A stretch of DNA of 64,000 nt. Origin: Lamellibrachia columna. Lineage: Eukaryota > Annelida > Polychaeta > Sabellida > Siboglinidae. Positions 1 to 60,706 of this stretch are shown here, piece after piece. The position numbers were made by a program, and so were the translations under genes. Positions within the stretch are counted from its first letter, which is position 1; each line of letters opens with the position of its first letter. The DNA is taken from positions 38,354,345 through 38,418,344 of the forward strand of contig OY759271.1 of NCBI GenBank assembly GCA_963662155.1, given 5' to 3'. The notes under the pieces were generated by a model, which did no database searches, was not told where the DNA came from, and was given only the letters and a program-made list of their open reading frames with translations.

Positions 1-910
1 GTCTGAGAAATCTAATAGAGCAGTCAGAATGAGCATGCGTTCAGACCACCTAACTATGGGAACATATTAGTCTATTTTATTTGTACTGCAGAGTACTGTT
101 CAGAGACTTCTCTCTGTGGGACAGTGAGAACAACCCCTGGTTCTCTGGTCTCTCCACACACATGGGCCATGTCCCAGGTAGAGCATTTCAGTCATGGCAC
201 CAAACAAAATTAATCATTATCTTTTCAAATGGATGCACTGTCACTGTTCACCAGATTACACTGTACAAAACTAGTATTTATTTTCTTGAGTTGTCAGTGA
301 AAGACCTTAGTCCCAGCACAGTATTTCACCAGTGTTGTTCTTGAGGCTTGAGCAGTTATAAACTATTTTGTTGAGACATCTATAATAAATACCTATATTA
401 GATGGGAAGTGTAGATGCAGTGCTGCCACACTGTGGCTAATGTGACAACTAAGCATTGCCATTCATAATGATGCTGCCATCTAGCGAATCAAACATTAAC
501 AACATATAATTCAAACAAGATCTACAACTGGGGAAAGATCATTATTTATGTGCTGATGGTAGACAAATACAGTGATGATGAGATTGTACCCCCTTTTCAG
601 GAATGCTTCCACCCTGAAAAAATAGTTGATGAACAGGAAACAACACTTCTGCTGTGCACAGGTTTAAATTTCTAGTTGCTGGTCGGCAGTGTGGACGCGT
701 CAATGACGGAAGGATCCCTGGTGTACGCGTCAATTACGGAAGGATCCCTGGTATACGAAGACTGAATCCAGTTTGTTTGGGCAACAAATGACAGGAAACA
801 TCTTCCATATTGATTTTAACAAACAATACTAAGACAGACACGGACGGCAGGCCAACACAGACATGGATGATACTTATACAACTGATAAAAAGGACAGGAA
901 ACAAACTCAC
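1..910. other. CECR2 intron 6 sequence, no exon recognised
   Basis: The next CECR2 exon (basic, coiled-coil region before the bromodomain) was looked for on the minus strand and not found. The sequence at 695-750 carries a short direct repeat around GGAAGGATCCCTGGT. Nothing else can be supported. Confidence 0.5.
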
Positions 911-1206
911 CTTCTGCTTGTAGAGGGTTTCAACCAATGGAATGATGTCATACAACTGATAAGAAGAAGGACAGGAAACAATCTCACCTTCTGCTCATAG
1001 AGTGTTTCAACCAATGGGATGATGTCTTACAACTGATAAGGACAAGAAACAAACTCACCTTCTGCTTGTAGAGGGTTTCAACCAATGGAATGATGTCATA
1101 CAACTGATAAGGAGGACAGGAAACAATCTCACCTTCTGCTCATAGAGTGTTTCAACCAATGGGATGATGTCTTACAACTGATAAGAAGGACAAGAAACAA
1201 ACTCAC
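911..1206 (-). repeat. Tandem array of CECR2 exon-6 ends (four extra donor/acceptor/mini-exon units)
   Basis: Immediately downstream of the exon 6 donor, a unit of about 74 bp is repeated four times. Each unit has a GTGAG donor, a 26-32 base pyrimidine-rich spacer ending in TTATCAG, and a 45-base copy of the exon end finishing GAGCAGAAG or AAGCAGAAG. Mini-exon positions on the minus strand are 1177-1133, 1103-1059, 1032-988 and 955-911. The first and third read TTG TAA (stop). The second and fourth are open and read [15 protein letters not shown]. The spacers are too short to be ordinary introns, but splices that skip units are possible. Confidence 0.85.
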
Positions 1207-1888
1207 CTTCTGCTCGTAGAGGGTTTCAACCAATGGAATGATGTCATCGGTGAGCCGTCGATACAGTTTGCGTTCACAAGCTACACTGCTCTTGTGGAAC
1301 TGTTCTGACAGAGTCGTCCAATCCTCAATAGTCACACACACCACGTGCCAACACCCTGAACCGCTGTCTGATGTGTCACACTGTCTTCCCTGCGACATCT
1401 TCCCAGCTGAAGAAATGTTGTCAACATCTGAATCGCTGTCACTGCTGCTCTGATCTGCCGGCTCCTCTTTCTTCACTTTCACTGCTTGGTAGCATGTTGT
1501 TGTGGACCGTGTACGTGAACTACGCCTTGGGGTGGAGCTATCAAAGATAGAGACATCTTTCTTGGCCAGTGAGTTGTCGCTGCTCCTTCTCGTGTTCACA
1601 TTTCTGCCTTCAGCTTCTGTTTTCTCTGATTCCGATTCTTTCTTGACATGTTTCCTCAGTGGAGATTCATCACTGCTATCACTCTGTACATCAGAAGTTA
1701 CTTTGCCACGTGTGCTCCTAAAATTGTGCACACTTCTAGTCCGTAGATGTGTTGTCGCCTCGCTTTTCAATTTTGTACTTTGGCCTCCTTTTGAATTTGC
1801 TATATTTCCCAAAGATCTTGACTGTCTTTGCTGTTTTGTTTTTGGTTGCTTGTCTTGCTTTTTAGCATTGGTGCTTCGTTTCCTAGAA
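1207..1888 (-). CDS. CECR2: CECR2 exon 6
   Basis: The acceptor is CCTATTTTTTAG and the donor AAG|GTGAGT. The 682 bases encode a lysine- and serine-rich, low-complexity acidic linker containing a VKKEE motif (a possible sumoylation site). It ends with [19 protein letters not shown], a conserved segment (human WWLLCQTEEEWRQVTESF), then [19 protein letters not shown]. The last 45 bases are the source of the downstream repeat array at 911-1206. Confidence 0.88.
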
Positions 1889-7573: not shown

Positions 7574-9345
7574 TTATCCATAGAGGATGTCTTTCGGCAA
7601 GCGGCCGTCCTCCATGCGAAGTACATGGCCCAACCAGCGCAGGCGTCTCTGGCTCAGCAATGAATGCATGCTGCGGATCCTGGCATGGTCCAATATGTCG
7701 CTGTAGGGGATACGATCCTGCCATGTGATGCAGAGGATACGCTTGAGGCACCGCATGTGGAAGGTGTTGAGGCGGCGCTCCTGGCACATGTATGTTGTCC
7801 ACGATTCGCTGCCATAGAGGAGGGTGCTCAACACACAGGCCTGGTAGATTCTCATCTTGGTGTTCTCAGTGAGCATCTTATTTTCCCATACTCTTTTGGT
7901 CAGCTTGGCCATAGTGCATGCGGCTTTTCCGATGCGCCTGTTTATCTCCGTGTCCAGCGAAAGGTTGTTAGAGATGTTTGACCCGAGGTAGGTGAAGTCT
8001 TCTACTACCTCCAGGGTGTAGTCATTGATCTTGACGGAGGGGACTTGGCTGGCATCCCGTGCAATGACGTTCGTCTTCTTCAGACTGATTGTGAGTCCAA
8101 ACTCTCTGCAGGCGTGTGCAAAGCGATCGACCAGCCTCTGGATGGCCTCTCCTGAGTGGGCATCTGTAAACAGCATCTCCCTGGCGTATACCTCTGTCAA
8201 CTTTGTTTTGGCACGCAGTCGTGCCAGGTTGAACAGCTTCCCATCAGATCTGGTGTGCAGGTAGATACCATCTGAGGAAGAGTCGAAGGCATATGACAGA
8301 AGGAGGGAGAAGAAGATCCCAAACAATGTTGGAGCAAGGACACAGCCTTGCTTAACACCGCTGCAGACAGTGAAGGGCTCCGATGTCGAACCATTCTACA
8401 CAACTGTACCCTTCATGTTCTCATGGAAGGAGACCACCATGCTGCATAGCTTGGGAGGGCAGCCGATCTTCTCAAGTAGGCGGAAGAGTCCCTTCCTGCT
8501 GACAAGATCGAAAGCCTTGGTTAAGTCAATGAACGCCCTCTTCTCTGCACTTTTCTTGGAGCTGAGAAGATCATATCTATGGTGGATCTTCCTGCACTGA
8601 ACCCGCACTGGGATTCTGGGTAGACACGTGAGCCAAGTTTCTGAAGTCTGATTAGTAGGACCCGAGCGAAGGCCTTCCCCACAATGCTCAATAATGATAT
8701 GCCCCTATAGTTGTTGCAGTCACTGCGGTCGCCTTTGTTTTTGTACAAGGTGACTATTGTAGCATCCTGCATTTCTTGAGGGACTGTTCCTTCATTCCAG
8801 CAGAGACAGAGCAGTTGATGTAGGTGCTGTAGTAAGGCGGGCTTCGCACACTTGATCACATCTGGCGGTATGCTGTCACATCCTGGTGCCTTGCCGCAAG
8901 AGAGGGAGTCAATAGCTTTGCTCAGGTCCTCGATTGTGGGCTCGTTGTCCAGCTCCTCCATCATAGGTAAGTCCCTGAGGGCGTTGAGAGCAGCATTAGT
9001 AACGACTGTTTCTCGGGAGTACAGTTCTGAATAATGTTCAACCCATCGTTCCATCTGTTTATCCCGGTCTGGGAGCATCTCTCCTGATGTGGATTTCAGT
9101 GGAGCCATCTTCCTTACAGTGGGGGCAACAGTTTTCTTGATGCTATCGTACATGCCGCATACGTTTCCGCAGTCGGCTGAGTTTTGGATACTCTCGCACA
9201 GTTTCAGCCAGTAGTCATTTGCACAGCGTCTTGCTGTGCATTGTGCGATGCTCCATGCAGATTTGAGAGCCGACAGTGTCCTCTCACATGGATTGTGTTT
9301 GTATGCAAGCAGGGCTTCTCGTTTGGTTTCAATGATGGGTACCAT
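7574..9345 (-). pseudogene. LINE reverse transcriptase, frameshifted, stop-containing, catalytic motif deleted
   Basis: From 9345 the frame encodes a helical linker, then WNEGTVPQEMQDATIVTLYKN, NNYRGISLLSIVGKAFARV and QCGFSAGRSTIDMIF (RT motifs 1-2). A frameshift near 8540 moves the frame to FIDLTKAFDLVSRKGLF (motif A). An in-frame TAG lies near 8393, followed by VKQGCVLAPTLFGIFF (motif B). Motif C should read about FADDAAL but here reads LFTDAHSGEA, consistent with an in-frame loss of about four codons and one catalytic aspartate. GLTISLKKTNV, VEDFTYLGSNIS and QRRLRWLGHVLRMEDGRLP follow. Confidence 0.85.
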
Positions 9346-9513
9346 AACATGTAGGTTAGCATTGAACCAGTCTTGGTTTGGTCTTTCTCTCTTGCCAAAT
9401 GCAGTTATCGCTGCATTGTAGATGGTATTACTGAGGGTGTTCCACCTTGCTGTGGCGTCCTGATCCGGAAGGTCCTGAAGGGACTGCTCAAGGGAGGCTA
9501 CAAACTGCTCCCT

Positions 9514-10338
9514 TCATTGGGGGTCTGCAGTTCTAGCAACATTGATGCGAGTGCGACCTGTGGGCTTGGAGCGGTGCAGCTTACGCGGAGAGAGTCTCAC
9601 TTTACTGCACACCATGGCATGGTCTGTATCACAATCTGCACTGGGGTAGCTACGTGTTGCTAGGACATTGTTCAGAGCAGAGCGTCTGGCGATGACAAGG
9701 TCTAGTTGATACCATTTATGAGACCTTGGATGCTTCCACGACACTTTTTGCTGATGCTTTGACTGGAAGAAGGTGTTGGTGATGCAAAGACCATGAAATG
9801 AGCATAGCTCCAATAATCTTTGTCCATTGTCATTCATCCTCCCAGTGCCGTGGTGTCCAATGCAGGACGGCCATGACTGATGGTCTGAGCCTACTCTGGC
9901 ATTAAAGTCGCCAAGAAGGATGAGCGGCTCAACTTTGGGAATCTTGCCAATCAGGCTGTCAAGCTCATCATAGAAATGGTCCTTGATATCTTCAGAGGCC
10001 CCCAATGTAGGGGCGTAGATGCTGAAGATGTGGACAAACCCTGCAGCAGTGGCGAGACGGATAGATAGAATGCGCTCAGTGCCACCAGTGGGAGGCTCCA
10101 CAGTATCAAGGAGAGAATTCTTGACAGCAAAACCAACTCCGTACAAGCGGGGTTCCTCGGGCTCCTTCCCTTTCCAGAAGAAGGTGAAATTCTCTTCCTT
10201 GAGACATCCGCTGGAGGCAAGTCTGGTTTCCTGGAGAGCTGCGATGCTGACATCGAGTCTGGTTAGCTCCCTATCGATAATAGCTGTTTTCCTGCTGTCA
10301 TTGACCTGTTGCAGGTCATCTGAGATACCGGGACACAT
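9514..10338 (-). pseudogene. LINE endonuclease domain (EEP/APE family), broken
   Basis: The 274-codon open stretch contains the endonuclease hallmarks in order: IAALQETRL (Mg-binding glutamate), VGFAVKN, ILSIRLAT, IFSIYAPTLG, LILLGDFNARVG (catalytic DFN), and KWYQLDLVIARR with DTDHAMVCSKVRL (final aspartate-histidine pair). The chain then loses frame at about 9514 before the linker to the reverse transcriptase. It would nick target DNA during target-primed reverse transcription if intact. Confidence 0.85.
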
Positions 10339-11160
10339 GGTCCGTACATTTCAGCTTGCGAAGCGAAGTGCTGGGTACTTCTTAGTTTTTCATTGTTTGC
10401 CTGGTGCAGGGATACCATCTGCTTGTTGTGCCTAAACACTAAGTTCCAAGCATCCATTGAAGCAGGCAGATGTTGGCGAGTCAGCACCTTATTGGCTGGG
10501 GGCTGCCCAACTTAGGCGGGCGGTAGCTGACCAGTGAGACACGATGATCTCTCCCACCGTCAGAGACAACCCGTAGCGCCCGTACTCTATGCCAATTGAG
10601 TTGGGCTTATTACTCGTAACTGCTGTCTCCCGTGTTAGTTCCACACTGTGAAGTGAGGCTGGAGTAGCAGGGCGCAAGCCTGGGCAAGAGTTACGAGATC
10701 CTGGGTTGCCCAGTCATCAGGATCCCGCTCTCGGCCTTACCGGTGGGATCCAAAGGAATGCGAAACATGACGTTTGGCACCAGCTTGGCTGCAGGAGCTG
10801 CCAGAAAAGTGACAACGTGATCACCAGACCGTCTTCGGGGCTCCACCCCGAATTTGTGTAGGGTTTACTCCCATAGCCTTCCCCATGAGAGGGTATAGCC
10901 GCAAGGCAGCGGAGGTTTGAAATAAGAGTTTACCTTCTCCTAGACGGGCGACCAGTCAAGGTTAACGAGCCCCATCTGCCCGAAGCTTCTGGTTTTCAGG
11001 CGCCAGATATCCGCCTTTGCCCGTTCTCCTGTCAGTAAAAACAGTTCTGCCACAAGAAGGCCAGGAGCTGGACTGGACTGTCAGAGGCTTTACGAGACGC
11101 ACATCGTTGGGGCATTTTATAAGTAGTGAGAGCTTGAAATGGGTGTACACCAAGGAGTAT

Positions 11161-50038: not shown

Positions 50039-50504
50039 CTACGAGCTGCATTTGCACTTGCAAAGTGGTGAGCTCTCCAGGGTAACTTTGCAGTTTGAGC
50101 AATCTCGTTTGTAGCAGCAATTGATGAGCTCTTGACATGCTTTGGATACCCCCAGAAGTGTCACCCAAACTGGCTGCCATGATTCAGATACCTTGGCCCG
50201 GGCATATTCCTGGTGAGAAGGAACCACTTGTTGGGTCTGTAAGCTGGTGGTCCAGATTCCAGCTTGGCCCGTCGGGTATACTGCAGTAGAGCATCCTGTG
50301 TTGGTGGCATTCTTTCTATGGACTGATTCTTCAGGCAGAAGATGTCTTTTTTGTGTGGTTGAGCTCAGTGGACTGCTCTTGTCGTACAAGATGACAGTTG
50401 GTCTCTCATACAAGAGCTCGAACGGGTGGCATGCCAAATACTCAAATGTTTCTGTGATCTCCCCATAGGCCTGCCAAGCCTTCCACGTGGATTGCCTTTG
50501 CCCT

Positions 50505-51465
50505 TGAAGGCAGATGTTGGTCTCAACGAGAGAAAGGATGGAATAGTGGCAGCGCTCTTGATCTTGGCTCTCCGAGGCTTACGCAGATGTTGGTCTCAAC
50601 GAGAGAAAGGATGGAATAGTGGCAGCGCTCTTGATCTTGGCTCTCCGAGGCTTACGCAGATGTTGGTCTCAACGAGAGAAAGGATGGAATAGTGGCAGCG
50701 CTCTTGATCTTGGCTCTCCGAGGCTTACGCAGATGTTGGTCTCAACGAGAGAAAGGATGGAATAGTGGCAGCGCTCTTGATCTTGGCTCTCCGAGGCTTA
50801 CGCAGATGTTGGTCTCAACGAGAGAAAGGATGGAATAGTGGCAGCGCTCTTGATCTTGGCTCTCCGAGGCTTACGCAGATGTTGGTCTCAACCAGAGAAA
50901 GGATGGAATAGTGGCAGCGCTCTTGATCTTGGCTCTCCGAGGCTTACGCAGATGTTGGTCTCAACCAGAGAAAGGATGGAATAGTGGCAGCGCTCTTGAT
51001 CTTGGCTCTCCGAGGCTTACGCAGATGTTGGTATCAACGAGAGAAAAGATGGAATAGTGGCAGCGCTCTTGATCTTGGCTCTCCGAGGCTTACGCAGATG
51101 TTGGTCTCAACCAGAGAAAGGATGGAATAGTGGCAGCGCTCTTGATCTTGGCTCTCCGAGGCTTACGCAGATGTTGGTCTCAACGAGAGAAAGGATGGAA
51201 TAGTGGCAGCGCTCTTGATCTTGGCTCTCCGAGGCTTACGCAGATGTTTGTCTCAACCAGAGAAAGGATGGAATAGTGGCAGCGCTCTTGATCTTGGCTC
51301 TCCGAGGCTTACGCAGATGTTGGTCTCAACGAGAGAAAGGATGGAATAGTGGCAGCGCTCTTGATCTTGGCTCTCCGAGGCTTACGCAGATGTTGGTCTC
51401 AACCAGAGAAAGGATGGAATAGTGGCAGCGCTCTTGATCTTGGCTCTTCGAGGCTTACGCAGATG
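50505..51465. repeat. 73-bp minisatellite, about 13 copies, made of pseudogene coding sequence
   Basis: On the minus strand each unit reads CVSLGEPRSRALPLFHPFSR in one frame. This corresponds to the SLGEPRSRALPxFHAxSGCD segment that normally occurs once, directly before TSAFKGKG and AYGEITE. Copies are nearly identical (AACGAG/AACCAG variants). The unique continuation of the gene resumes at both ends. Confidence 0.9.
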
Positions 51466-51540
51466 ACATTGAAGCTTTAGAATCTGCAATGCTTGCTTAT
51501 GCCAAAAGCCACCCAGACATCTCCCAACGGTTGTATCAAA

Positions 51541-51692
51541 GCCAGATCATGGTATATACCAACAACGATGGTAACGACATCTTTGTCCACAGTACAGATC
51601 ATGGTATATACCAACAACGATGGTATATACCAACAACGATGGTATATACCAACAACGATGGTATATACCAACAACGATGGTAACGACATCTT
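51541..51692. repeat. 19-bp and 52-bp-class duplications in pseudogene
   Basis: GGTATATACCAACAACGAT is repeated in tandem about four times, and the neighbouring GGTAACGACATCTTTGTCCA block is duplicated. On the minus strand it is a stutter of the DVVTIVVGIYHD codons upstream of DLALIQPLGDVWVAFG. GGTATATACC is itself a palindrome. Confidence 0.88.
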
Positions 51693-52366
51693 TGTCCACA
51701 GTACGCACTTGGATAGTCATCCAACCCTACTTTAGTGCACGCATTGCATGTACTACAACCCTCGTGGCAGTTTGGCATGGAGGTGCTGGAACCAGTGTAT
51801 ACAAGGCAAACAATTCCTTCTTGTTGTTTGGGTCACGGATGTCCGTCCAATTGCCTGGTAGCTTGGTTTGGCCTGACACTTTTCTGTGCACACCTTTCCC
51901 TCTTTTTTCCTGGGTCATCTCTGTTAAGCTGTCTCGCAGGTATTTGTCCTACACAACATCTAACCTTGAACGTACTGACACCGGTAGTTGGCAGGCAGTG
52001 GACGATGACAACACCATCCAGGACTTTGCAGTCGTAGGTTGAAGGCGGTTCAGGTTACCCAGCAGCTCAATACATGTCAGTAGTTCAGATTTCGTGCTTG
52101 TTAAATGGAGCTTGCCAAAGTCTGAGAGGGAAGGTGGGAAATATTGTATCTCGTGGGCAAAGAATTCCCTCAAGTCACCGGTCACGGCTCTGCATGGTGA
52201 CGTACAACTTACCAGAAAGTTCCACGTTGTTCTGTAGCACTTTGATCTTCTTTCCCTGCTTTGTCGTTGCCTTGAGTTTAGGTTTCTTGAAGCGGGCTAA
52301 AGAATTCTTGATCGGGTCATGGATGGAACGAGTACGATCTGTATTTTGTTGACGAAGTCCTGGTAC

Positions 52367-52626
52367 TGTTTATTTCCTTTCTCCTCCAAGGTGTGCAATG
52401 TTTATTTCCTGTCTCCTCTAAGGTGTGCAATGTTTATTTCCTTTCTCCTCCAAGGTGTGCAATGTTTATTTCCTGTCTCCTCCAATGTGTGCAATGTTTA
52501 TTTCCTGTCTCCTCCAAGGTGTGCAATGTTTATTTCCCGTCTCCTCCAAGGTGTGCAATGTTTATTTCCTTTCTCCTCCAAGGTGTGCAATGTTTATTTC
52601 CTGTCTCCTCCAAGGTGTGCAATGCA
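52367..52626. repeat. 32-bp minisatellite, 8 copies, made of pseudogene coding sequence
   Basis: The unit is AATGTTTATTTCCTGTCTCC plus TCCAAGGTGTGC. On the minus strand it reads HTLEETGNKH, a segment that should occur once between ADESVV and QDFVNK. Eight copies show C/T and G/T variants. Confidence 0.9.
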
Positions 52627-53105
52627 GCTACTACTGATTCATCCGCACAGTCGGGACGGTCGAATGTCAATGGATCTGGAAATTGATCCAAGAATGGGTT
52701 ACCCATTCTTCTGATGGTCTTAGAGAGTCGGCCAACCTGCCTTTAAAATGTTTTCTGCGCTGAAAGACCCTGTTCATGATCCTTAAAGTTCTTGGGATTC
52801 TCTGGGTCATCACCGGTAAGGTATTCGCACTCAAACTGCTTCTGCAACATTTCCAGGTCTGGTCCTGAGAGTATCCAGCGCCTGAAAGCAATGGAATTTC
52901 TGTCAGGCCAATACAACTCCCTGAGCCTTTCACATAGTCGTTCCCTTGCTCATGAGCCTGGTCAATTGGGATTGTAGAGAACTTGTTGTTGGTCTTGGAA
53001 AGGATCCACTGGCCGTGCTTCTCAAACTCCTTATTGATGGGATCGGGCAAAGACTTCTGTATCTGGTGTGAACAGGCAATCATCTCGCGTAATTCACATG
53101 ATCCA

Positions 53106-53243
53106 ATGCAAAGAAGAGAGGTGTCAGCTCCTCCATAAGAAGAGAGGTGTCAGCTCCTCCATAAGAAGAGAGGTGTCAGCTCTTCCACAAGAAGAGAGGT
53201 GTCAGCTCCTCCATAAGAAGAGAGGTGTCAGCTTCTCCAAGAC
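53106..53243. repeat. 26-bp minisatellite, 5 copies, made of pseudogene coding sequence
   Basis: The unit is AAGAAGAGAGGTGTCAGCTC plus CTCCAT. On the minus strand it reads EELTPLFF, the segment joining YVEVLEKLTPLF to ALDHVNYAR. Since 26 is not divisible by three, the repeats shift frame. Confidence 0.9.
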
Positions 53244-53367
53244 TTCCACATACAGAGGGAAGTTCTCTCTTTGAGCCCTGGTGAAGATGAGAATGAGAGT
53301 TTCGTATCTCATGATCAGGTCCCAGAACATAAAGGTTGTTGTGGTGTTTGCTATGTTGATGCTGGAT

Positions 53368-53685
53368 TTAAAACGTCGAGTGAGTAGTCAATCTGGTTGT
53401 GTATGTTCCATTAGGCGAGCGACTCATTGTTTTTCTTGATAATTTGTGCGGGTGTAAGGTGTTCGCCAAGGTGAGTTTATATTCGAATTCAAGAAGTCGT
53501 AGTCCTCTATCATTAGTTTCTCCTGTACCAAAGCGGCCTATAGTTCCAGCCCATTGTCCATGTGCATCTGGACCGATTTTTGCATTCCAATCTCCTTGCA
53601 CGACGAGGAACTCTTTTCTTTGAGCTTTCTTGATAGTGTTCTCCACTAGTACATGTATCACCTCCACCCTGGAGGGTACCAGTGG
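53368..53685 (-). pseudogene. LINE endonuclease fragment
   Basis: FLVVQGDWNAKIGPDAHGQW, GRFGTGETNDRGLRLLEF and LTLANTLHPHKLSRKTMS match the middle of a LINE AP-type endonuclease (catalytic GDWNAK). The frame breaks after SPNGTYTT and neither end of the domain is present. It is a different subfamily from the LINE at 7-11 kb. It abuts the upstream end of the CXC-family pseudogene. Confidence 0.8.
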
Positions 53686-53689
53686 AGGG

Positions 53690-55915
53690 CGCGGTCGTTG
53701 TTCATCCGGGCCCTGACCGATCCGGCAGCTGTTCTGTTGTGTGTTCCTGGCATTTCTGTGGGCAAAATATCCCCTTAGAAAGATAAAATGTATATTTTAT
53801 AAGGTTTATCGTGAATAAAATGCTTTTATTATTTTATTTATCTCCTCTCCAAGCGTTACTATTTATCCATAGTTGGGACATGGGTTCGTGACAGCGACAG
53901 AGCGTGTCCACTCTTGGGTGTGACATGTACCTCTGGGGCCCCATGCTGCTCCGAGATCCCTTCGCCTGGTGCCTCCCGGTGACCAGTATCCATTGGTTAC
54001 CCCGAGGAAGTTACGACGAGGGTCTTGTGTTAGGAGAGGCTGCTGTACTGGTGGACAAGGCTTATCCACACGGTGTCATAAGCTAGCCAGCGGTGGAAGC
54101 TGAAGGCAGTCACAATCACACTTGACGCATCACTCAAACCTGCAGAGCAAGCAGCACTAACCTTGATAACTTGGTAGTTCTTAATGAACGTCAATGTTTA
54201 CACGACTTCGTCATACACAACATTAATTCGATTGTTCGTAAAAATGGTGCAGATATATAACATGTAATTTCTCGTGCGTGCGTGCGTGCGGGCGTGCGGG
54301 CGTATGTTGCTGTTGCACTTATCAGCAACATACACTTGTAAATACGGTCCGTGTTATAGTTCACTTGTTTTATCTTGTCAGAGGTCGTAGATTGTTTTCT
54401 GACGTACCTAGCTCATCAGCAAGGGAAACTACCACAGAGGCAAATGTATGAGATAATTGTTGACATACTGCAGTCCTGATGCACGCCGACTGTTTGTGAG
54501 GTTATACCATTAATTGCATCTCGGGAGCAGCGACCACATCCGCGGCGCAGTCGTCGCGTCTGTGGCTGCGTTATTTATTTAGGCGAGGCGCTGGCTAAAG
54601 TGGCCGCGCTCCCAGCGCGGCGTTTGAGCACCGCCTGGCAGCAGCCGACGTTCCGGTAGCGTCGCTCTGTGGCTTCCAGACGCCGCGCATTATAATCAGA
54701 TTAGATCCACTTTGTTTTGTCGGACAAACTCCATGCAGTATTAATCTGTGTTTAACACGTGTCCCGGTGTTTGACGCTGAACAAAGGACAGTAGATGTCG
54801 ATAATTGCTCAGTAAAATGATGTTTGACGGCAGCGCCATGAAATTACCATGGCGTCTTGAAAGCAGACACAGTACATAGCATTAGTATCATAAAATTGGT
54901 ATTGGGCTATGGTATATTAACCAGTTAGCAAAATTACCCATAGTACATAGTGCTTCTGCAAACAAATTAAATTGAAGAAATTAATTTATTCTTATAATTA
55001 ATTCGATATATGCCTTGTTTATGCGAGTGTTGTTCTGCGTTATGCATGCTTACTCATGCTACGCTTAAACGTAATCCGTCCAGTTGTTTTTGATATGGGT
55101 ATTGACATTATTTCTGAAACAATACATGTGTCTTTATTATATGTTTGCATGATTGAGACATCTCTTCTGTTCCCGTTCACGGTCACAGACTTGCCAACTT
55201 TAAACATAAAACACAATTTATTTACTTTACGTATAAAGATGAAGTAGGCGAAAAGGAGAAAGATTGGAACAGTCCATACTAAACCAACACACTGACAACT
55301 AATTGAGTGTGCAGGTGACGTTTGGTAAACAACGCTTCAAGTGAACGTGTAGTCAACGTATGGTAAATTATAAGTCCACTCAGTTACGTCGACTAGATGT
55401 GTATGCTTGCATTGCCAGGATAGCGCGTGTCCATGTGTGCACACGTGCGCGTGCATGTGTGTGGGTGTGATATAGGAACAGCATACTTAAGAAGCATTTC
55501 CCGATGTATCAAATGTAATCAAAAGTATATTGTATTATTGAGGATGTCATTAATGTGTGTCAGGACGTTTGACGTGACGGTCATGTCATACCATTTCATT
55601 GAACTATGACCTCCTACGGGAATAAGAAGACCGTAGGCTGAGTGGATTAATAGGGTTTATAGATCCCTGTGTATGTTGTCCTACGCTGTCCCATTGTACA
55701 CATTGTGTACCCACGTTGTACAGACAATATGCCAACTGGGTCAACCTATTTCAATATCGACTATCCCATGAATATAAATGAATGTATATCATGTTACATA
55801 CTGTTAAAATAACAACACTGTATCGGCCGACTGTTGAATAATTAACGTAGATATATTACAATATCACACCACACGTTTCGATTTACAATGCCCGCGAAGC
55901 CTGAATTAGGTGTCT
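53690..55915. other. Intergenic region with GC-rich island at 54500-54690
   Basis: The segment 54530-54690 is strongly CpG-rich (GCGGCGCAGTCGTCGCG, CCCAGCGCGGCG) amid AT-rich sequence, and could be a promoter remnant or an unrecognised element. A CGTG(C/G)G microsatellite lies at 54273-54303. 53860-54090 is GC-rich unidentified sequence. No coding exon is supported. Confidence 0.4.
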
Positions 55916-56118: not shown

Positions 56119-57275
56119 CCGCAAGACTGCTAAAACACTTATGCAATCTTCATGTCGGACACTTATTCGGTGTCACACTCAGCCTCCGTCACCCGGGCCA
56201 CTCGCTTCGTTTCCTCGGCTATTCGTATCGTGTCACCTGTTGTGAACTTACATTAAAATAAACATGAAAAACATAGGAAATACGGGGAAATACTCATAAA
56301 ACATGAGTAAGCGCACAATTCTTAATTTGTCATGCCCAGTATACACCCAGTATACGCCCAGACCATTCCGCACTGGAAGCTTTCACGAGTGTACATGCTT
56401 TTTATCATGCATGACTGCTCATAGTGGGCAGACTAAACACAACGTCTCAGGAAGTAGACACCCCTTGTGACGGAGACTACCCAGCGCCAGGTCAACGACA
56501 AACATTGGCCTTGCTGTCACTGGTCAGCGACACGGCTAGTATGGCTGCACCCAATCACCCACACGCACGACTGCGTATATAATTTCATAATCGCATAAGT
56601 GAGCACACTGCAGGTTACGACAAGCATATTACGGCGCTGAGGTAAAGGGAAAACCCGCGTGACGGAGACAACACCGACTGACGGGCACAGATTAATGACA
56701 AACACAGTTGTCAGTGGTGGCCGTCGACACGGTCCCGAAAGGTGACGGCCAGTAAACACGCGACCACTCAAAAGCGGCGGCGTGTGTACGTGAAGACGCA
56801 TGCTACAAACGACCATCGCCGGTCCAAGGACGACACAGTCGCGACAACACACCTGCCTACAGACCGGGCAGGTAAGCGTGCGCCGGTCGATATCGACGGC
56901 TTTCGTTTGTCGCGGTGACGACCCACAGAGCGGCCTCGCTGACGACGACCCACAGAGCGGCCTCGCTGACGACGATCTGTATTGGTCGACGAACACTGAG
57001 CGCTCTCGGTTCGGGAGACGGCACCAGCGCGCTCCCGACTCGATGGCACGGATCTACGACAAATGCCATTACTCAGGTGTCGCTCAGGTAGCGTGTGACA
57101 GCGCCGTCTGTTGACGCGCACACACGCAACTCACAGTGGGTATCTGTGACGGCGTAGCAGCCTTGTACCAACCCGTGTACCGTTCACCGAGCTGTCTACG
57201 TGTTCCACGAAGACGTCGGCTGCGCAGTGAAAGCCAGCACCAGAACCGAACAGCGACCAGACTGAAGCTAAAGAC
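56119..57275. other. Fucosyltransferase 5' flank and 5' UTR
   Basis: Base composition becomes GC- and CpG-rich from about 56690 to the start codon, consistent with a CpG-type promoter. A 24-bp direct repeat (GACGACCCACAGAGCGGCCT plus CGCT) lies at about 56926-56973. Donor- and acceptor-like words are present, but no 5' UTR exon can be fixed. Open frames in this GC-rich DNA are not convincing genes. Confidence 0.4.
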
Positions 57276-57964
57276 ATGAGGCTGCACTTGAGACGCGCTG
57301 TCTTTGTCGTCCTCAGTCTCTTCCTATTGCTCTTCCTCGCTGTCACTTTGCTCCAGAACAGCGACGTGACGACCCTTGAGAACTCCCCGCCCCGCCACGG
57401 CAACAGCGCCGCCCACCTACGCCGTCGACATCCCCGTCGGAGCCGGCCAGCACCCGGCACCTTCCACCCCATCACTCGATACCTGGACAAGTACGGTCCG
57501 AAGGTCACCAGGACTGGGTCCTACCCCAACCTATGGCCGCATGCCGGACGCTGGTCAATCGGCGCAAACTTTGATCGGATAGTTTCTCAAATGAAGTTTG
57601 TTCCGCGTGGTCACAACGCCGCTACAATACGCCGCAGTAAGTACAAGACGATTGCTCTGTACGAAGGCGATGATATACCGATGGGCCAACGGAAGTTCAT
57701 CACCGACAGTTGTCCAGTGGACACGTGTCTATTGACCAGCTCGGACTTCAGTAGTGCTGACGCATTGCTGTTTAAAACAGGCGTCCACACGTCGCTGCAG
57801 AACAAGCCTCGGCACCAGACGTGGATCTTGTTCTCGCTCGAGTCGCCTCTCAACACCGGGCTCTACGAGGTCGGTCTCAACCAAGTCAACTGGACAGCCA
57901 CCTATCGGCCGGACTCGTCCATTGTCGCGCCCTACGAGAAGTTCCAGTTCTTCGCCAATGTCAG
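57276..57964 (+). CDS. Fucosyltransferase exon 1
   Basis: It starts at ATG 57276 (AGACATGAGG), directly before the signal anchor. It ends at AATGTCAG|GTTTGT, phase 2. The open frame beyond (to 58082) reads into the 58-bp array. Confidence 0.85.
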
Positions 57965-60706
57965 GTTTGTATTCCTACTTCTTCTTCCCATTGGTCCGTC
58001 GCGGGGTGGGACAACATCACTTAGTCTGCTCACCCCTCCTCTCCTCCATTGGTCCATTGCGGGGTGGGACAACATCACTTAGTCTGCTCAGCCCTCCTCT
58101 CCTCCATTGGTCCATTGCGGGGTGGGACAACATCACTTAGTCTGCTCACCCCTCCTCTCTTCCATTAGTCCCTTGCGGGGTGGGACAACATCACTTAGTC
58201 TGCTCAGCCCTCCTCTCTTCCATTGGTCCATTGCGGGGTGGGACAACATCACTTAGTCTGCTCACCCCTCCTCTCTTCCATTGGTCCATTGCGGGGTGGG
58301 GCAACATCACTTAGTCTGCTCACCCCTCCTCTCCTCCATTGGTCCCTTGCGGGGTGGAACAACATCACTTAGTCTGCTCAGCCCTCCTCTCTTCCATTGG
58401 TCCCTTGCGGGGTGGGACAACATCACTTAGTCTGCTCACCCCTCCTCTCCTCCATTGGTCCATTGTGGGGTGGGACAGCATCACTTAGTCTGCTCACCCC
58501 TCCTCTCTTCCATTGGTCCCTTGTGGGGTGGGACAACATCACTTAGTCTGCTCAGCCCTCCTCTCTTCCATTGGTCCATTGCGGGGTGGGACAACATCAC
58601 TTAGTCTGCTCACCCATCCTCTCCTCCATTGGTCCATTGTGGGGTGGGACAGCATCACTTAGTCTGCTCACCCCTCCTCTCTTCCATTGGTCCCTTGCGG
58701 GGTGGGACAACATCACTTAGTCTGCTCACCCCTCCTCTCCTCCATTGGTCCATTGTGGGGTGGGACAGCATCACTTAGGCTGCTCACCCCTCCTCTCTTC
58801 CATTGGTCCCTTGCGGGGTGGGACAACATCACTTAGTCTGCTCACCCCTCCTCTCCTCCATTGGTCCATTGCGGGGTGGGACAACATCACTTAGTCTGCT
58901 CAGCCCTCCTCTCTTCCATTGGTCCCTTGCGGGGTGGGACAACATCACTTAGTCTGCTCACCACTCCTCTCCTCCATTGGTCCATTGCGGGGTTGGACAA
59001 CATCACTTAGTCTGCTCACCCCTCCTCTCTTCCATTGGTCCATTGCGGGGTGGGACAACATCACTTAGTCTGCTCAGCCCTCCTCTCCTCCATTGGTCCC
59101 TTGCGGGGTGGGACAACATCACTTAGTCTGCTCACCCCTCCTCTCCTCCATTGGTCCCTTGCGGGGTGGGACAACATCACTTAGTCTGCTCAGCCTTCCT
59201 CTCCTCCATTGGTCCATTGCGGGGTGGGACAACATCACTTAGTCTGCTCAGCCCTCCTCTCTTCCATTGGTCCATTGCGGGGTGGGACAACATCACTTAG
59301 TCTGCTCACCCCTCCTCTCTTCCATTGGTCCATTGCGAGGTGGGACAACATCACTTAGTCTGCTCACCCCTCCTCTCCTCCATTGGTCCCTTGCGGGGTG
59401 GGACAACATCACTTAGTCTGCTCAGCCCTCCTCTCTTCCATTGGTCCCTTGCGGGGTGGGGCAACATCACTTAGTCTGCTCAGCCCTCCTCTCCTCCATT
59501 GGTCCCTTGCGGGGTGGGACAACATCACTTAGTCTGCTCAGCCCTCCTCTCTTCCATTGGTCCCTTGCGGGGTGGGACAACATCACTTAGTCTGCTCAGC
59601 CCTCCTCTCTTCCATTGGTCCCTTGCGGGGTGGGACAACATCACTTAGTCTGCTCAGCCCTCCTCTCCTCCATTGGTCCATTGCGGGGTGGGACAACATC
59701 ACTTAGTCTGCTCACCCCTCCTCTCTTCCATTGGTCCATTGCGGGGTGGGACAACATCACTTAGTCTGCTCAGCCCTCCTCTCTTCCATTGGTCCCTTGC
59801 GGGGTGGGACAACATCACTTAGTCTGCTCACCCCTCCTCTCTTCCATTGGTCCATTGTGGGGTGGGACAACAGCACTTAGTCTGCTCAGCCCTCCTCTCC
59901 TCCATTGGTCCCTTGCGGGGTGGGACAACATCACTTAGTCTGCTCAGCCCTCCTCTCCTCCATTGGTCCCTTGCGGGGTGGGACAACATCACTTAGTCTG
60001 CTCACCCCTCCTCTCCTCCATTGGTCCATTGCGGGGTGGGACAACATCACTTAGTCTGCTCAGCCATGTCGACTCCATCCATCGTGATCTTCTGCCATTC
60101 TCTCCTCTTCTCCTTCTACCATCTTCTTCTGTTTTCCATGTTCTCTACTTCGATAACTGACACGGTCTACGAGTCACGGTTATGATACATCGACGCAATT
60201 CAAATACCAGCTCTGTCAGTCAACAACAGATTACACAGTTATCTGTTATGTTAGAATCCTTTACTTCCCATGGCATAGGTAACTGTGACAAACGACAGTA
60301 ACACCTGCCAGTGACGTCTGACGGTGACTACTGATTGCGATTTCTGACCGCCCGCCATCTCTCTTTACGACACACTTTCATGTCGTGATAACTTATCGTC
60401 AGAGATCACATACTGCCTGCCCATCTATATTCACCTGTTCCTCCATTCTGTCTGGCTCGCTCAAAACAGTGATCCTTGGCGCCGGTGACCCGACTGCGAA
60501 AATGTAACACATTTAGATTCATCCTTCAACGAGTCTGAGTGCATTGAAGACTCACCAATGATGCTGTGTTCTGCAGCAAACTGCCCCGGACGGCGCCGCG
60601 CAACTTCGCGGCCGGGAAGCGAAAGTTGGTCGCGTGGTTCGTGTCCAACTGCGACACGACGAATGGACGCATGGACTACGTGCGACAGCTGCAGAAACAT
60701 ATCCAG
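57276..60706 (+). CDS. Alpha-1,3-fucosyltransferase (GT10), exons 1-2, continues off right edge
   Basis: Exons 57276-57964 and 60577-60706 join in phase 2 to give 273 codons with no stop. MRLHLRR is followed by a hydrophobic stretch (VFVVLSLFLLLFLAVTLL, residues about 9-27), a type II Golgi signal anchor, and a Pro/Arg-rich stem. The GT10 N-terminal domain follows: KTIALYEGD, CPVDTCLLTSSDFSSADALL, WILFSLESPLNT, NWTATYRPDSSIVAPYEKF. Exon 2 starts the conserved KRKLVAWFVSNCDTTNGRMD then YVRQLQKHIQ (family KxxLVAWxVSNC...RxxYVxxLQKxI). Such enzymes move L-fucose from GDP-fucose to GlcNAc of N-glycans or Lewis-type acceptors in the Golgi lumen. NWT is a possible glycosylation site. The donor-binding C-terminus should lie beyond 64000. 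Family assignment is firm; the exact specificity is not. Confidence 0.9.
57985..60066. repeat. 58-bp minisatellite, about 36 copies, fucosyltransferase intron 1
   Basis: The unit contains CATTGGTCC(A/C)TTGCGGGGTG, GGACAACATCACTTAGTCTG and CTCA(C/G)CCCTCCTCTC. The first unit begins about 20 bases after the exon 1 donor. Each unit carries ATTGG, the reverse complement of a CCAAT box. Confidence 0.95.
60067..60576. other. Fucosyltransferase intron 1, 3' end
   Basis: Unique intron sequence up to the acceptor at 60576. No other feature is supported. Confidence 0.5.
60577..60706 (+). CDS. Fucosyltransferase exon 2
   Basis: The acceptor is GTGTTCTGCAG and the donor CAG|GTGAGG. It encodes KLPRTAPRNFAAGKRKLVAW, FVSNCDTTNGRMDYVRQLQK and HIQ. 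It leaves in phase 0. Confidence 0.9.

What the first reader, a model, noticed from the sequence alone, without database searches (positions are those of the whole stretch)
50039..53380. Four minisatellites inside one broken gene, each grown from that gene's own coding sequence
The units (26 bp = EELTPLFF, 32 bp = HTLEETGNKH, 19 bp = VVGIYH region, 73 bp = SLGEPRSRALPLFHPFSR) sit at the colinear position where the protein family has that segment once, and unique coding sequence resumes on both sides. So the arrays are local amplifications, not inserted satellites. Four independent events in 3.3 kb suggest a genome-wide process that converts neutral DNA into minisatellites. The colinearity is visible. 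The family assignment rests on memory of unnamed invertebrate proteins.
Basis: partly seen in the sequence, partly recalled or inferred. Interest (0 to 1): 0.75.

Follow-up and report, generated by a model that had tools for sequence, protein, structure and literature searches.

The report
Minisatellites born inside a dead gene
A decayed animal gene contains four tandem-repeat arrays that each grew from a single short piece of the gene itself, and the way these and many neighbouring arrays begin and end fits a known kind of copying slip between tiny matching sequences.

Summary
Four arrays (73, 19, 32, 26 bp) lie in a decayed minus-strand gene at about 50039-53345. Each unit is the gene's own sequence at the colinear site, which homologs carry once: single-copy spacing in 69 of 71, 59 of 59, 29 of 32 and 62 of 63 homologs with both anchors (26-, 32-, 19-, 73-bp sites; 127 examined). 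No period is a multiple of 3. A nested 52-bp duplication was missed.

New here: two units are bounded by short direct repeats, CATCTGC (73 bp) and TACCAT (19 bp). The 32-bp array shares only CA; the 26-bp array ends one base short. Window-wide, 17 of 29 testable arrays show a 3-9 bp founder overlap, against 13.7% under simulated blunt duplication (P 2e-8; stricter ends, 10 of 33, P 0.0013). This is the ABA-to-ABABA duplication of the Haber-Louis model, also seen in flap-endonuclease-deficient yeast. A 74-bp array crossing an exon-intron border of a CECR2 homolog shows the process is not confined to dead DNA.

The mechanism is known; the density (about 39% of the window) stands out. Genome-wide extent is untested.

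The parts
50039..53345 (-). Decayed copy of a multi-copy animal gene (homolog P0008 and 245 others), split by frameshifts, stops and five tandem duplications; upstream limit approximate
50510..51465 (-). 73-bp array, 13 copies + 7 bp; unit = ICVSLGEPRSRALPLFHPFSG(stop)DQ; all 13 copies have a stop where the family has a conserved Cys
51459..51465 (-). CATCTGC, upstream founder direct repeat of the 73-bp unit
50510..50516 (-). CATCTGC, downstream founder direct repeat of the 73-bp unit
51601..51682 (-). 19-bp array, 4 copies + 6 bp; unit = TIVVGIYH region; begins and ends with TACCAT
51544..51704 (-). Nested 52-bp tandem duplication (second copy starts at 51595); the 19-bp array lies in one of its two copies
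52367..52624 (-). 32-bp array, 8 copies + 2 bp (CA); unit = ALHTLEETGNK region
53111..53239 (-). 26-bp array, 4 copies + 25 bp (last unit one base short); unit = LEELTPLFF region
53371..53796 (-). Fragment resembling a LINE endonuclease directly upstream of the gene
   Evidence: 38% identity over 80 columns to the endonuclease ORF at 9517-10350; no Pfam match of its own
876..1247 (-).

Best explanation
Each array began as one tandem duplication of a unique piece of the gene. In two of the four arrays here, and in over half of the testable arrays of the window, the duplicated piece lay between two short direct repeats (A-B-A became A-B-A-B-A), as expected from strand slippage or from re-annealing of an unprocessed Okazaki flap; the others arose with little or no overlap, in the 26-bp case with one extra junction base (end-joining-like). 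The duplications then grew to 4-13 copies by slippage or unequal exchange. The gene was probably already dead when the 73-bp array grew. Shown: own-sequence origin, single-copy homologs, the overlaps, their window-wide excess. Inferred: the replication-slippage or flap step and the later expansion.
For: Colinearity with intact P0008. Single-copy spacing in 69/71, 59/59, 29/32 and 62/63 of the homologs with both anchors, out of 127 examined. Array length modulo period gives overlaps of 7 (CATCTGC), 6 (TACCAT), 2 (CA) and -1 bp. Same measure over 29 arrays with period of 15 bp or more (33 less four with poor end phase): overlap 3-14 bp in 17 of 29 (all 3-9) vs 13.7% in 4,126 simulated blunt duplications put through the same pipeline (P 2.1e-8); 5-14 bp in 12 of 29 vs 6.8% (P 1.7e-7); overlap -1 to 9 in 24 of 29 vs 11.1 expected if the two ends were unrelated in phase. 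Excluding the four arrays: 15 of 25; arrays with 3 or more copies only: 10 of 18, P 3.5e-5. No similarity between units of different arrays (0 pairs at E 0.05), so births look independent. Overlaps of 3-9 bp and periods of 15-76 bp among those 17 arrays fall within the rad27-deficient yeast range quoted in PMC5677150 (5-108 bp, mediated by repeats of 3-12 bp). All 13 copies of the 73-bp unit share a premature stop.
Against: Two of the four arrays (32 bp, 26 bp) have overlaps no larger than chance gives, and the nested 52-bp duplication and the CECR2-homolog array have only about 1 and 2 bp. A stricter way of trimming ends weakens the window result (10 of 33 vs 10.2%, P 0.0013; at 6 bp or more 4 of 33, P 0.05). 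Seven of 29 overlaps are negative, five of them below -1 and unexplained. The simulation used substitutions only, no indels. No DNA of an intact relative was obtained, so the founder repeats are inferred from the array's own edges. The shared stop could also have been spread by homogenisation. Overlap alone does not separate slippage, flap re-annealing, microhomology end joining and template switching.
Confidence: 0.83

Rival explanations
1. The repeats are ancestral in-frame repeats of the protein family.
For: None found.
Against: Single-copy spacing at all four sites in nearly all homologs with both anchors. A looser motif scan of 127 proteins found second matches in 36, 2, 1 and 0 of them (26-, 32-, 19-, 73-bp units), all at least 29 residues away, none at unit spacing. 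None of 73, 19, 32 and 26 is a multiple of 3.
Confidence: 0.01
2. Satellites inserted from elsewhere.
For: The window is full of arrays.
Against: Units match the gene's own segment at the colinear place and have no match elsewhere in the window; gene sequence resumes on both sides.
Confidence: 0.02
3. The founding duplications were made by double-strand-break repair (microhomology end joining or template switching) rather than by slippage or flap re-annealing during replication.
For: The 26-bp array has no usable overlap and an extra junction base; the nested 52-bp duplication has about 1 bp of overlap. Seven of 29 arrays have negative overlaps. Overlaps of 3-9 bp also fit polymerase-theta joining (recalled).
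Against: 17 of 29 have an overlap of 3 bp or more, and unit sizes match the rad27 range; this favours but does not prove replication slippage.
Confidence: 0.3
4. Assembly artefact inflates or invents the arrays.
For: Near-identical copies; copy numbers in assemblies are often wrong (recalled).
Against: Copies differ by point variants scattered along the 73-bp and 32-bp arrays, and each array has its own unit and defined edges.
Confidence: 0.05

Closest known systems
Minisatellite birth by duplication between 5-10 bp direct repeats (Haber and Louis 1998; original not read, seen as described in passages of PMC3389668 and PMC2820488)
   Same: The 73-bp and 19-bp units are bounded by 7- and 6-bp direct repeats; 12 of 29 arrays in the window have overlaps of 5 bp or more.
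   Different: PMC3389668 reports that 300 of 7,276 human TE-derived repeats fit this model (two models together about 6%); the fraction here is far higher, though the measure is not the same and this is one window.
[quoted passage not shown] original not read, seen as described in PMC3389668)
   Same: The 26-bp array ends in a unit one base short; an incomplete terminal unit is the model's key feature as described there.
   Different: Only two of 29 arrays have overlap -1; 17 have an overlap of 3 bp or more.
ABA-to-ABABA duplications in rad27 (FEN1) deficient yeast (PMC5677150: passages and the section on hotspots read)
   Same: Same structure, overlapping unit sizes and repeat lengths.
   Different: There the flap nuclease is deleted; nothing is known of flap processing in this animal. 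Arrays here have grown to many copies.
Amphioxus 'mirage' minisatellites (PMC3087553, passages read)
   Same: Tandem units arising in gene sequence; the CECR2-homolog array here spans an exon-intron border as mirages do.
   Different: The four arrays of the finding lie inside a decayed reading frame; that paper calls the mechanism unclear, whereas edge overlaps are measured here (about 2 bp for the CECR2-homolog array).

Membership tests
Haber-Louis minisatellite origin | Unit bounded by a 5-10 bp direct repeat, 73-bp array | tested here: met
   CATCTGC, 7 bp
Haber-Louis minisatellite origin | Same, 19-bp array | tested here: met
   TACCAT, 6 bp
Haber-Louis minisatellite origin | Same, 32-bp array | tested here: not met
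   CA only, 2 bp
Haber-Louis minisatellite origin | Same, 26-bp array | tested here: not met
   Overlap -1
Taylor-Breden minisatellite birth | Incomplete terminal unit, 26-bp array | tested here: met
   4 x 26 + 25 bp
Mirage minisatellites | Tandem units spanning an exon-intron border | tested here: met
   Array 876-1247: five exon ends, each followed by GTGAG; the four arrays of the finding do not show this
Ancestral protein repeats | Units repeated in frame in intact homologs | tested here: not met
DUF6589 (PF20231) | Score above Pfam's gathering cut-off | tested here: not met
   15.3 and 16.2 bits vs 27 for P0009 and P0012, no match for P0008; some other listed homologs carry the precomputed domain
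FEN1/EXO1/XPG-type 5' nucleases (the broken gene's family) | Fold of the nuclease domain | tested here: met
FEN1/EXO1/XPG-type 5' nucleases (the broken gene's family) | Conserved active-site acidic residues | tested here: inconclusive
   Seven acidic positions conserved among the rows of a 75-sequence alignment that have a residue there: D359 67/69, D401 59/61, E489 48/50, D492 51/51, D516 51/52, D518 51/52, D579 49/52; equivalence to FEN1 residues is recalled, not read off a structural alignment

The most novel reading that the evidence does not exclude
This animal carries a standing, genome-wide excess of ABA-to-ABABA tandem duplications like that of flap-endonuclease-deficient yeast, so that ordinary sequence, dead genes and exon edges alike, is continually seeded with minisatellites until they make up a large share of the genome. 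A bolder, untested addition: the gene broken here belongs to a multi-copy animal family with a FEN1/EXO1-like nuclease fold, and such copies might interfere with normal flap processing.
Probability: 0.15. Interest if true: 0.8.

Novelty: new member of a known kind. Interest (0 to 1): 0.48.

Why it matters
How minisatellites start is hard to see because the pre-duplication sequence is normally unknown. A decayed copy of a well-populated protein family gives an outside reference, so five founding duplications in 3.3 kb can be placed on a known single-copy protein. The remainder of array length over period is a simple readout of the founding overlap that can be applied to any genome, and here it favours short-direct-repeat duplication over blunt copying. 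PMC3389668 (passages and section 3.4 read) says that two published models account for only about 6% of human TE-derived tandem repeats, so a genome in which one of them seems to explain much more would be a good place to study the process.

Tried and rejected
Searching the window's own genome for other copies and other arrays: the genome search did not complete (the same request each time).

Getting DNA of an intact homolog: viral contigs with the 156-aa C-terminal piece and with P0008 and genome contigs with P0008 gave no relative; phage records gave none with the 156-aa piece.

Naming the organism: only an indirect hint, a hit to Lamellibrachia satsuma (P0003) and two unnamed ENA hits (P0002, P0005) that read like close relatives of this copy. 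I do not claim a species. Passages of the Ridgeia and Paraescarpia genome papers gave no tandem-repeat percentage.

Rfam: no match at gathering score. Pfam on nine fragments, the LINE piece included: nothing above cut-off. PDB sequences with the family alignment: none up to E 1. A library search for 'DUF6589' listed no paper. A search for papers with at least three of flap endonuclease, transposable element, domesticated, PIN domain listed six, none about this family by title or start of abstract; none was opened.

A stricter end-trimming of arrays was tried first; it also trims internal variants in degenerate arrays and gave a weaker result in the same direction, reported above.

Full report
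What is there. They sit in minus-strand coding remains that are broken by stops and frameshifts. After overlapping TRF rows are removed the window holds 37 arrays, 25,018 bp or about 39% of it.

Which gene. The C-terminal 156-aa piece found seven proteins, one named from Lamellibrachia satsuma. A 670-aa read-through found 246 proteins, of which 120 were listed; the best, P0008, is 57% identical over 99% of the query. Listed names include Synaphobranchus (eel), Entelurus (pipefish), Myxine (hagfish), Nematostella, Montipora and Paramuricea (corals), Haliotis, Petrolisthes (crab) and Nymphon (sea spider); the common names are recalled. Tblastn of P0008 and P0010 gives colinear blocks across the window copy.

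Single copy elsewhere. For each array I took 16-residue anchors on both sides of the segment in P0008 and measured the gap in all 127 fetched homologs (7, 120). Both anchors were found in 71, 59, 32 and 63 homologs for the 26-, 32-, 19- and 73-bp sites; 69, 59, 29 and 62 have exactly the single-copy spacing. The exceptions are 6 (one) and 590 (one, P0011, a gene model in which a long stretch of the protein occurs twice) at the 26-bp site, 6, 6 and 8 at the 19-bp site, and 28 at the 73-bp site; none is an added unit. P0002, which reads like a close relative of this copy, has the 19- and 73-bp segments once. None of the periods is a multiple of 3, so repeats of these units cannot be in-frame protein repeats. 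None of the four units has a match elsewhere in the window at E 0.1, and no two of the window's arrays with period of 15 bp or more share a unit at E 0.05.

How they began. An array grown from one duplication of A-B-A has a length of n periods plus the length of A. The 73-bp array is 13 x 73 + 7, A = CATCTGC; the 19-bp array is 4 x 19 + 6, A = TACCAT; the 32-bp array is 8 x 32 + 2, A = CA; the 26-bp array is 4 x 26 + 25, one base short. A further 52-bp tandem duplication surrounds the 19-bp array; by eye its overlap is about 1 bp. Direct repeats of this kind are plentiful: 38 pairs of 6 bp or more and 11 of 7 bp or more at offsets of 15-100 bp in 1,881 bp of the gene's unique sequence.

Window-wide test. 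Of 37 arrays I dropped three with period under 15 and the one cut by the window edge, leaving 33; four more (starts 877, 23651, 36323, 46434; overlaps -72, 14, -3 and 1) were dropped for poor phase identity at an end, leaving 29. The overlap lies in 3-14 bp in 17 of 29, against 13.7% of 4,126 simulated blunt duplications of unique window DNA with the same periods and copy numbers and a substitution rate set from TRF's match percentage (4,350 made; P 2.1e-8). For 5-14 bp it is 12 of 29 against 6.8% (P 1.7e-7). Overlap -1 to 9 is seen in 24 of 29, against 11.1 expected if array ends were unrelated in phase. Without the four arrays of the finding it is 15 of 25; with only arrays of three or more copies, 10 of 18. 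A stricter end rule gives 10 of 33 against 10.2% (P 0.0013), and 4 of 33 for 6 bp or more (P 0.05). Of the 29, 17 have overlap 3 or more, 5 have 0-2, 2 have -1 and 5 are below -1 and unexplained.

Timing. All 13 units of the 73-bp array carry a stop codon where 47 of 52 homologs with a residue there have cysteine, next to an aspartate kept in 49 of 52. The simplest reading is that the gene was dead before the array grew; later homogenisation is the alternative.

Not only dead DNA. At 876-1247 a 74-bp unit repeats five times an exon end followed by GTGAG. The exons are those of a CECR2 homolog: a protein search with the joined exon pieces returned nine proteins, one of them the window's own and one named 'cat eye syndrome critical region protein 2 homolog' from Haliotis rubra (P0135). 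P0129-P0131, 56-57% identical over 62-66% of the query, read on past the exon end for some 20-30 residues with no sign of a second unit in that frame. This resembles amphioxus mirages (PMC3087553, passages read). By eye the overlap of this array is only about 2 bp, and it is one of the four dropped from the window test.

Comparison with print. PMC3389668 (passages and section 3.4 read) gives the two origin models and states that 159 plus 300 of 7,276 human TE-derived repeats fit them. PMC5677150 (passages and one section read) describes ABA-to-ABABA insertions in rad27-deficient yeast, with B of 1-91 bp and A of 1-21 bp, and earlier data of 5-108 bp duplications mediated by 3-12 bp repeats. 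The 17 arrays with overlap here have A of 3-9 bp and B of 12-73 bp. The originals by Haber and Louis and by Taylor and Breden were not read. The mechanism is therefore known; what is unusual is how many births lie in one window.

Limits. The genome could not be searched, no DNA of an intact relative was obtained, array copy numbers depend on the assembly, and one window cannot speak for a genome. After checking, confidence in the explanation was lowered from 0.85 to 0.83 because the nested duplication and the CECR2-homolog array also have small overlaps.

Noticed in passing
50039-53345, and homologs P0008-P0127: The broken gene belongs to a taxonomically scattered multi-copy animal family whose C-terminal half is predicted to have a FEN1/EXO1-type 5' nuclease fold with conserved acidic residues; Pfam covers it only weakly (DUF6589), and a library search for that name listed no paper.
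   Followed up: partly
876-1247: A 74-bp array repeats the end of an exon and its splice donor five times in a CECR2 homolog, like amphioxus mirages.
   Followed up: partly
57983-60062: A 58-bp array of about 36 copies begins about 50 bp after the end of a fucosyltransferase domain match (Glyco_tran_10_N in the ORF 57231-58079, plus strand).
   Followed up: no
7577-10350: LINE-type element on the minus strand in three ORF pieces (endonuclease above Pfam's cut-off, reverse transcriptase just below it); TRF lists no array in it.
   Followed up: partly
53345-53796: The broken gene directly abuts a LINE-endonuclease-like fragment on the same strand; how the two came together is unknown.
   Followed up: partly
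26352, 26908, 44118, 55925, 57983 (array starts): Five arrays have end phases that fit neither an overlap nor a blunt duplication (overlap -5 to -11); eroded ends or inserted bases are possible.
   Followed up: no
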